Assembly: GCF_010731895.1 (NCBI RefSeq)
Contig: NZ_AP022596.1
Location: forward strand, 2,604,001 to 2,668,000
Source of the DNA: Mycolicibacterium helvum
GTDB taxonomy: Bacteria > Actinomycetota > Actinomycetes > Mycobacteriales > Mycobacteriaceae
Length of the DNA stretch: 64,000 nt
Direction of reading: 5' to 3'
Shown here: positions 63,257 to 64,000 of the stretch, piece by piece
Layout of the letters: each line of letters starts with the position of its first letter
Position numbering within the stretch: the stretch's first letter is position 1
Position numbers and translations under genes: made by a program
The notes under the pieces: generated by a model
The model's input: the letters and a program-made list of their open reading frames with translations, nothing else
The model's database searches: none
What the model was told of the DNA's origin: nothing

Positions 63257-64000
63257 CTACAGCAGTTCGAGCCGGCGGGCCATATCGGAGGCAAACACGC
63301 CATTGGGATCGGCCTTGCGGCGCACGGCAATCCATTCATCGATCCGCGGATACATCTTGTGGAAATTCTCGGCGCTCACCCGAGAGTCCTTGGCGGTATA
63401 GACGCGACCGCCGAATTTCATGACACGGCTGTCGAGTTCGTTGAGGAACGCGTTGACGCCGGGATTGTTGGGGAAATCCATGGCCACATTCCAGCCGGCC
63501 ATTGGAAAGCTCAGCGGGGCAGGGTTTCCCGGACCGAACAACTTGAAGACGTTCAGCGCGGAGTAGTGGCCCTGGGTCTGGATCCACCGGATGATGTCTT
63601 TGAATTCGTCCAGCGCGTTGGGCGGCACGAGGAACTGGTGCTGCGCGAAACCGGCTGGGCCGTAAGCGTATTGCCAGCCTGTCGTGATATCCAGCATGTG
63701 GTAGAACTGCGTCAGATTGACGATCTTGTTCTGGTAGTTGCCGCTCATCCGATAGAACGCCTCGCCGACGAGGTTGAGTGACAGCTTGTTCATGACGCTG
63801 ACGGGGAAGATGTTTGGCAACCCGGGCAGCTTGGGCGCACTGAACTGCAGGGGGTCTTTCGCCAGCTTCGGCGGCAGTTGGTCCAGTTTGGCCAGGCTGC
63901 CCCGGCTGACCGCAGCGCGGCCCAGCTTCGGCGGTGGGTTGATGAGATCGAACCACGCGCTGGAATAGGTGTAGTTGTCCTCGCTGCCGTCCTGGTGGAC
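63257..64000 (-). CDS. dprE1: Decaprenylphosphoryl-beta-D-ribose oxidase DprE1, C-terminal 247 residues
   Basis: FAD enzyme that oxidises decaprenyl-phosphoryl-ribose at C2'. The window holds the substrate domain and C-terminus; the FAD-binding half lies beyond the edge. Counting back from the stop with M. tuberculosis numbering (461 residues), Tyr314 is kept (QFYHMLD), Lys418 is kept (YTAKDSR) and position 387 is Ala in AGWNVAMDFP instead of Cys. The codon is at 63482-63484. That Cys is the residue that benzothiazinones bind covalently. Ends ASDMARRLELL as in the family. First gene of the cluster that runs to embB. Confidence 0.97.
   Translation of the reverse strand, partial: VHQDGSEDNYTYSSAWFDLINPPPKLGRAAVSRGSLAKLDQLPPKLAKDPLQFSAPKLPGLPNIFPVSVMNKLSLNLVGEAFYRMSGNYQNKIVNLTQFYHMLDITTGWQYAYGPAGFAQHQFLVPPNALDEFKDIIRWIQTQGHYSALNVFKLFGPGNPAPLSFPMAGWNVAMDFPNNPGVNAFLNELDSRVMKFGGRVYTAKDSRVSAENFHKMYPRIDEWIAVRRKADPNGVFASDMARRLELL

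What the first reader, a model, noticed from the sequence alone, without database searches (positions are those of the whole stretch)
63482..63484. DprE1 has Ala in place of the benzothiazinone-reactive Cys387
The stop-anchored count puts this codon exactly at position 387 of the 461-residue M. tuberculosis enzyme, and the flanking text aligns (GWN-x-A-x-DFP against GWN-x-C-x-DFP). M. avium (Ala) and M. aurum (Ser) are the known natural variants and are resistant to covalent nitrobenzothiazinones. This organism is therefore predicted to be intrinsically resistant to BTZ043-type drugs but still open to non-covalent DprE1 inhibitors.
Basis: partly seen in the sequence, partly recalled or inferred. 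Interest (0 to 1): 0.75.

Follow-up and report, generated by a model that had tools for sequence, protein, structure and literature searches.

The report
Ala387 DprE1, a swapped mycobacterial allele
This mycobacterium makes an essential cell-wall enzyme that lacks the cysteine which benzothiazinone drugs attack, and its gene belongs to a separate lineage of that enzyme which mycobacterial species seem to have exchanged repeatedly, rather than to a one-off mutation.

Summary
Window codon 63482-63484 (minus strand, GCC) is Ala at the position of DprE1 Cys387; the alignment has no gap and the genome shows one dprE1. The predicted loss of covalent benzothiazinone (BTZ) binding is reasonable: 14 of 14 published non-covalent BTZ contacts are unchanged, and mycobacteria with Ala or Ser are reported resistant. 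It was not measured here.

The residue is not a private curiosity. 156 of 396 Mycobacterium genomes have Ala here; 149 of these carry one DprE1 lineage ("A-type") that differs from the Cys lineage along the whole gene, third codon positions included. It cuts across the species tree: at least 18 changes of Ala/Cys on an rpoB tree against 2 on the dprE1 tree of the same 59 genomes. Two close relatives (G009, G295) have Cys-type dprE1 directly before a dprE2 that is 90-94% identical to the window's. Best reading: repeated replacement of dprE1, sometimes with dprE2, at one locus by homologous recombination.

The origin of the Ala lineage is unresolved and why it is kept is unknown. Ala387 in other mycobacteria was known; seven searches of an open-licence library showed no report of the exchange.

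The parts
63482..63484 (-). Ala codon (GCC) at the position of M. tuberculosis DprE1 Cys387; residue 392 of the 466-aa ORF
63257..64000 (-). dprE1, 3' part (247 aa); the gene continues beyond the window for another 657 bases (L002:61-1458)
   Evidence: NCBIfam NF053785
62458..63237 (-). dprE2 (decaprenylphospho-erythro-pentofuranosid-2-ulose 2-reductase)
   Evidence: NCBIfam NF053786, 410 bits against cut-off 250
60608..62449 (-). aftA (arabinofuranosyltransferase); Ala/Cys of dprE1 changes 14 times on its tree
   Evidence: Pfam AftA_N and AftA_C
57348..60605 (-). emb arabinosyltransferase
   Evidence: Pfam PF04602, PF14896, PF17689

Best explanation
The window carries an intact DprE1 of the A-type lineage, which has Ala where BTZ drugs need Cys387. 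Without the thiol the drug's nitroso form cannot make its covalent bond, so nitrobenzothiazinones should act at most as reversible ligands while non-covalent inhibitors keep their pocket (inferred). The Ala did not arise in this species: dprE1, alone or with dprE2, has been replaced many times at one fixed locus (gtrA-dprE1-dprE2-aftA-emb) by homologous recombination between mycobacteria, carrying the resistant or the sensitive residue with it. The gene-tree conflict is shown; recombination as the means is inferred from it; resistance is inferred from published cases.
For: Residue and single copy. Pocket kept. A-type is one clade of 76 rows (SH-aLRT 100) in a 138-row tree; it stays apart from Cys-type with third codon positions only, without 15 residues either side of 387, and with either half of the protein (1 change each once the terrae-like group is set aside; 2, 2, 3, 2 with it), so convergence at the pocket does not explain it. 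Conflict: at least 18 changes of Ala/Cys on the rpoB tree against 2 on the dprE1 tree of the same 59 genomes; 14 on aftA, 9 on dprE2, 1 on dprE1 for the same 69 loci. AU tests: rpoB rejects the 30 A-type genomes as a clade (p 1.9e-7); dprE1 rejects {G000,G313,G184,G009,G295} (p 1.5e-63) and {G175,G395,G387} (p 1.1e-8). Mosaic loci: G295, G241, G009 have Cys-type dprE1 (69-71% aa to the window) before dprE2 at 94, 95, 90%. Same locus: a full dprE2 was found in 130 of 138 loci, starting within 150 bases of the dprE1 end in 130 of those 130.
Against: No susceptibility datum for this organism. A named M. vaccae protein (P0339) has Cys although M. vaccae ATCC 15483 is reported resistant. PBTZ169 worked in mice against an Ala species. 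Only rpoB served as an unlinked species marker; the gyrB check never ran. dprE2 also conflicts (9 changes), so the exchanged block differs between cases. In some pairs of differing type the dip in dprE1 is slight: G097/G261 81% against 82% in dprE2, G060/G282 77 against 81. The residue can also change by itself (G263).
Confidence: 0.85

Rival explanations
1. Independent point changes: each Ala species lost the Cys on its own, and the similarity of A-type proteins is convergence or shared selection.
For: Ala on a Cys-type backbone does occur: G263 (L344) in the genus, and L330/L331 (G443, G459) outside it.
Against: The A/C split holds at third codon positions and in both halves of the protein; 149 of 156 Ala genomes are A-type.
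Confidence: 0.05
2. Ancient duplication followed by differential loss: the ancestor had both genes and each species kept one.
For: One genome of another genus (G488) holds both, a Cys copy and an Ala copy elsewhere (L318, L319/L323). It explains deep divergence without transfer.
Against: Of 396 Mycobacterium genomes, 9 had two matches (four candidates scored per genome), and none was a full A-type plus a full Cys-type gene (fragments were not all read). Both types sit directly before dprE2. Within the A-type, dprE1 groups G395 and G387 with G223 and G333 (starred), while rpoB puts G223 with G092 and G298 and G387 with G395 and Cys-type G175.
Confidence: 0.1
3. The organism is resistant or susceptible for reasons other than residue 387 (nitroreductase, permeability, efflux), so the Ala does not predict its phenotype.
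For: Nitroreduction of BTZ and MSMEG_6503 mutants affect resistance in M. smegmatis (PMC3206020, abstract and passages); the M. vaccae discordance.
Against: Cys387Ser missense mutants were more than 10,000-fold more resistant (PMC3958311, passages); MICs and residue agree for 4 of the 5 species that I could match by name.
Confidence: 0.15

Closest known systems
Cys-type DprE1 of M. tuberculosis and M. smegmatis (PDB 4fdn and 4g3t groups; organisms recalled)
   Same: Same enzyme family; the 14 published non-covalent BTZ contacts
   Different: Cys at 387; the window protein belongs to another lineage, 65-73% identical to the Cys-type and Cys-bearing terrae-like rows
DprE1 of M. avium and M. abscessus (natural Ala variants; PMC3206020, PMC9765218, passages)
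   Same: Ala at 387; a protein named M. abscessus (P0015) is 88% identical over the whole window protein and has Ala
   Different: Species; the passages seen treat the residue as a species variant, not as a lineage that moves
Second DprE1 with Ser of Nocardia brasiliensis (PMC4608729, passages)
   Same: Also lacks Cys387; its relative in G355 (L165) passes the NCBIfam DprE1 cut-off
   Different: A separate paralog family; the mycobacterial members are 58-59% identical to the window protein
Mosaic target genes such as pneumococcal and neisserial PBP genes (recalled)
   Same: A drug target swapped by homologous recombination between species
   Different: Here mostly whole-gene replacement, with no known drug exposure

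Membership tests
DprE1 (decaprenylphosphoryl-beta-D-ribose oxidase) | Score over the curated NCBIfam equivalog cut-off | tested here: met
   NF053785, 775.1 bits against 500
DprE1 (decaprenylphosphoryl-beta-D-ribose oxidase) | FAD-binding and ALO domains | tested here: met
   PF01565 and PF04030 over gathering scores
DprE1 (decaprenylphosphoryl-beta-D-ribose oxidase) | Place next to dprE2 and the arabinan genes | tested here: met
   dprE2, aftA, emb follow; a gtrA-like end lies upstream (name gtrA recalled)
DprE1 (decaprenylphosphoryl-beta-D-ribose oxidase) | Oxidase activity on decaprenylphosphoryl ribose | not testable with these tools
   No assay
Naturally BTZ-resistant DprE1 variants | No Cys at 387 | tested here: met
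Naturally BTZ-resistant DprE1 variants | High MIC of a covalent BTZ, or no adduct | not testable with these tools
   No measurement for this organism
Gene replaced by recombination between species | Tree conflict with neighbours and a distant housekeeping gene | tested here: met
   the dip is slight in some pairs
Gene replaced by recombination between species | Conflict confirmed by a second unlinked marker | not tested
   gyrB search unanswered eight times

The most novel reading that the evidence does not exclude
Mycobacteria keep two old alleles of an essential cell-wall enzyme in circulation across the genus, as bacteria do with surface antigens or phage receptors. The Ala allele would be kept because some natural nitroaromatic or thiol-reactive compound in soil and water attacks Cys387, and the Cys allele because it works better without it, so benzothiazinones would imitate an existing natural weapon.
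Probability: 0.15. Interest if true: 0.85.

Novelty: new member of a known kind. Interest (0 to 1): 0.5.

Why it matters
Covalent BTZs are in development for tuberculosis (recalled) and have been tried on other mycobacteria. About two in five Mycobacterium genomes in this sample, one genome per species, lack the target cysteine, and close relatives differ, so susceptibility cannot be read from species relatedness; the dprE1 gene itself must be read. It also suggests that an essential, mostly single-copy cell-wall gene can be exchanged whole between species, which makes the question of what keeps two forms in circulation testable.

Tried and rejected
Rejected: a gap shift hiding a Cys (ungapped alignment); a second Cys copy; convergence around the pocket. 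The nine two-match genomes were first thought to hold both types. They proved to be genes in pieces or an extra fragment (G103, G302, G294, G370, G150), two copies with the same score on two contigs (G014, sequences not compared), or the Ser paralog beside another copy or fragment (G162, G355, G148).

A tempting claim withdrawn: in two trees Ala sequences of two other genera (G473, G488) lay with the mycobacterial A-type and terrae-like group (98/96), suggesting that the Ala lineage is older than the genus. The AU test did not reject all Mycobacterium DprE1 as one clade (p 0.65, held tree 11 log units better), so this stays open.

The terrae-like group (12 rows, 14 with two rows: 6 Ala, 8 Cys): of 36 fixed base differences between its 4 Ala and 8 Cys rows, five lie in codons 382-388 and all five match the commonest A-type base, one of them also the commonest Cys-type base. 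A short conversion tract, a regained Cys or linked substitutions fit; not decided.

Rows dropped: one search left out the partial G150 copy and a duplicate of the G355 locus; one search left out the 3 Ser rows; one search kept every third A-type row; one search left out 15 listed rows (long or distant outgroup rows and the Ser rows) and kept every second of the remaining A-type and Cys-type rows.

Led nowhere: Rfam (0 matches); papers PMC6201125 and PMC3128490 not held; one search gave an rpoB tree from wrong-strand ORFs (45 rows, 15 changes) and was replaced.

Full report
WHAT WAS CLAIMED AND WHAT IS THERE. The codon at 63482-63484 on the minus strand is GCC, alanine. The ORF ends at 63257 and runs off the window end; the whole ORF, read from the same genome, is 466 aa. 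Against the 461-residue PDB chain 21gq the 247 residues align without a gap, GWNVAMDFP facing GWNICVDFP, so Ala stands at Cys387. The protein is DprE1 by NCBIfam and is followed by dprE2, aftA and an emb gene. The genome shows one dprE1. The nearest named genome is Mycolicibacterium sphagni ATCC 33027 (98% over the 247 aa).

DRUG MEANING. BTZs become nitroso compounds in the enzyme and bond to the Cys387 thiol (PMC3958311, abstract and introduction passages). PMC6128881 Table 2 (passage) lists 14 non-covalent contact residues; all 14 are unchanged in the window protein. Differences between A-type and Cys-type near the site are 388 (Met 72 of 76, Val 47 of 47), 362 (Ala 74, Phe 47), 335 (His 74, Tyr 47) and 316 (Met 72, Pro 47). 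Published cases agree with the inference: Ala in M. avium and Ser in M. aurum (PMC3206020, passages); Ala in M. abscessus with BTZ inactive and OPC-167832 active (PMC9765218, abstract and passages); PBTZ169 MIC above 32 ug/ml for M. scrofulaceum, avium, intracellulare, abscessus and chelonae, and 0.01 or below for kansasii, marinum, gordonae, fortuitum and gilvum, with xenopi below 0.016 (PMC10106926 section 12). For 5 species I have both a named sequence and a published MIC, not known to be from the same strain: chelonae, scrofulaceum, abscessus (Ala, high) and gilvum (Cys, low) agree; vaccae (P0339 Cys; ATCC 15483 above 100) does not. So resistance is likely but inferred.

HOW COMMON. In 396 Mycobacterium genomes, 393 have a DprE1 match at E 1e-60. 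Identity to the window protein falls into two heaps: 146 genomes with a listed full-length match of 77% or more, then a step to 74% and below (the table shows 150 rows; recounted). A DNA pattern for GWNxAxDF hits 158 of 396 genomes; all 146 are among them. The other 12: three A-type genes in pieces (G302, G103, G379), six terrae-like (G181, G377, G101, G086, G144, G145), one Cys-type backbone (G263), and two set aside, G297 (its dprE1 was read as Cys) and G231 (word unlike DprE1, not checked). That leaves 156. Of the 146, 76 were read as protein and 76 have Ala. The Cys codon was not tallied over all 396; outside the A-type, 55 of the loci have Cys.

TWO LINEAGES. The 138-row DprE1 tree has one A-type clade of 76, all Ala, SH-aLRT 100 on a stem of 0.26; 47 Cys-type rows, all Cys; a terrae-like group of 12 (4 Ala, 8 Cys; the name is my guess from genome size, not from a label) next to A-type (support 88); and 3 rows of a Ser paralog. 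Controls (135 rows): third positions only, protein without 387 and 15 residues either side, first half, second half. Each separates A-type from Cys-type with one change when the terrae-like rows are set aside (2, 2, 3, 2 with them). With three more Ala rows (L342-L344) the fewest changes are 3.

THE GENE DOES NOT FOLLOW THE SPECIES. rpoB was taken from 59 genomes (30 of 30, 29 of 30; G320 gave none) and placed in a careful tree: 33 Ala, 26 Cys, 18 changes at the least, against 2 on the dprE1 tree of the same genomes. Not all rpoB forks are firm, but starred forks join Ala and Cys species in G252/G331, G175/G395, G060/G282, G006/G045, G195 with G326/G338/G365, and G009 and G295 with the window's own group. 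Neighbouring genes say the same: 69 loci with all three genes give 1 change on dprE1, 9 on dprE2, 14 on aftA; 130 loci give 2 and 13. AU tests reject forcing either tree on the other in the three cases tried. Within the A-type, too, dprE1 (G395 and G387 with G223 and G333) and rpoB (G223 with G092 and G298) disagree.

ANATOMY OF THE SWAP. Against the window, G295, G241 and G009 read 60-78% in every 200-base bin of dprE1, then 82-89% in dprE2 and 73-87% in the aftA bins that could be compared. Pairwise, G000 and G009 are 94% in rpoB, 72% in dprE1, 83% in dprE2; G000 and A-type G184 are 94, 94, 91. The 400 bases upstream differ too (71% for G009 against 91% for G184), so the left edge may lie further up. 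Other pairs of differing type show less: G175/G395 78 against 86, G195/G326 79 against 89, G006/G045 78 against 82, G060/G282 77 against 81, G097/G261 81 against 82. In five genomes that I take as abscessus/chelonae-like by sequence (L107, L109-L112), dprE1 and dprE2 are both 86-89% to the window while aftA is 66-70%: there the two seem to have moved together. In L202-L220 dprE1 is 77-79% and dprE2 73-75%. A full dprE2 was found in 130 of 138 loci and starts within 150 bases of dprE1 in all 130, which fits homologous replacement better than insertion elsewhere; this last step is inference.

OUTSIDE THE GENUS. In 121 family genomes (7 of them Mycobacterium) 119 matched, and none outside Mycobacterium exceeds 71%. 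Of 57 such DprE1 genes read (40, 17), 52 have Cys, 4 Ala, 1 Thr. G473 has Ala in a dprE1-dprE2-aftA locus (L322); G488 has a Cys copy and an Ala copy elsewhere (L318, L319/L323); G443 and G459 have Ala on a Cys-type branch. Whether G473 and G488 share the mycobacterial Ala lineage is not settled. The Ser paralog belongs to a family with many Nocardia and Rhodococcus members: of the 120 listed proteins, 118 Ser and 2 unread; a second DprE1 with Ser was noted in N. brasiliensis before (PMC4608729, passages).

NOVELTY. Ala387 as natural BTZ resistance is known. I found no report of the two lineages or of their exchange in seven searches of an open-licence library (listings seen, selected papers opened at passages or one section only). 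Subscription papers are mostly not held, so this is weak. The gene is a new member of a known kind; the exchange pattern is the part worth following.

LIMITS.

Noticed in passing
L344 (G263:C162): Ala at 387 on an otherwise Cys-type DprE1 (MRGWNVALDFPIK): an apparent independent change within the genus.
   Followed up: partly
L164, L165, L166 (G162, G355, G148): A Ser-bearing DprE1 of the Nocardia/Rhodococcus kind in three Mycobacterium genomes, with no dprE2 found in the fetched stretch.
   Followed up: partly
L323:5998-7440: Extra DprE1 with Ala beside a sigma-factor-like gene (named from its sequence only), in a genome whose other copy has Cys (L318).
   Followed up: partly
P0067: A metagenomic A-type DprE1 with Thr at 387 (MAGWNATMDFP), the only one of 120 listed that is not Ala.
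   Followed up: no
L057: A genome labelled M. aurum has Ala, while the literature gives Ser for M. aurum; strain or label may differ.
   Followed up: no
L106 (G172) dprE1, opposite window 63658-63857: Identity to the window dips to 68% inside dprE1 between bins of 83-93%, a possible recombination tract within the gene; this stretch is variable in other rows too.
   Followed up: no
L141, L158, L161, L169, L172: Five Cys-type dprE1 loci have no full dprE2 in the fetched stretch (L158 has a partial match), so the pair may be split in some species.
   Followed up: no
L002:3115-4575 and L002:5904-6016: Upstream of dprE1 in the window genome: a DUF222 protein (13E12-repeat type, name recalled) and a perfect 8-base tandem repeat of 14 copies (CACCCTGG).
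   Followed up: no
window 10105-10345 and 47492-47693: Tandem repeat arrays (periods 15-60 and 12-87), not examined.
   Followed up: no
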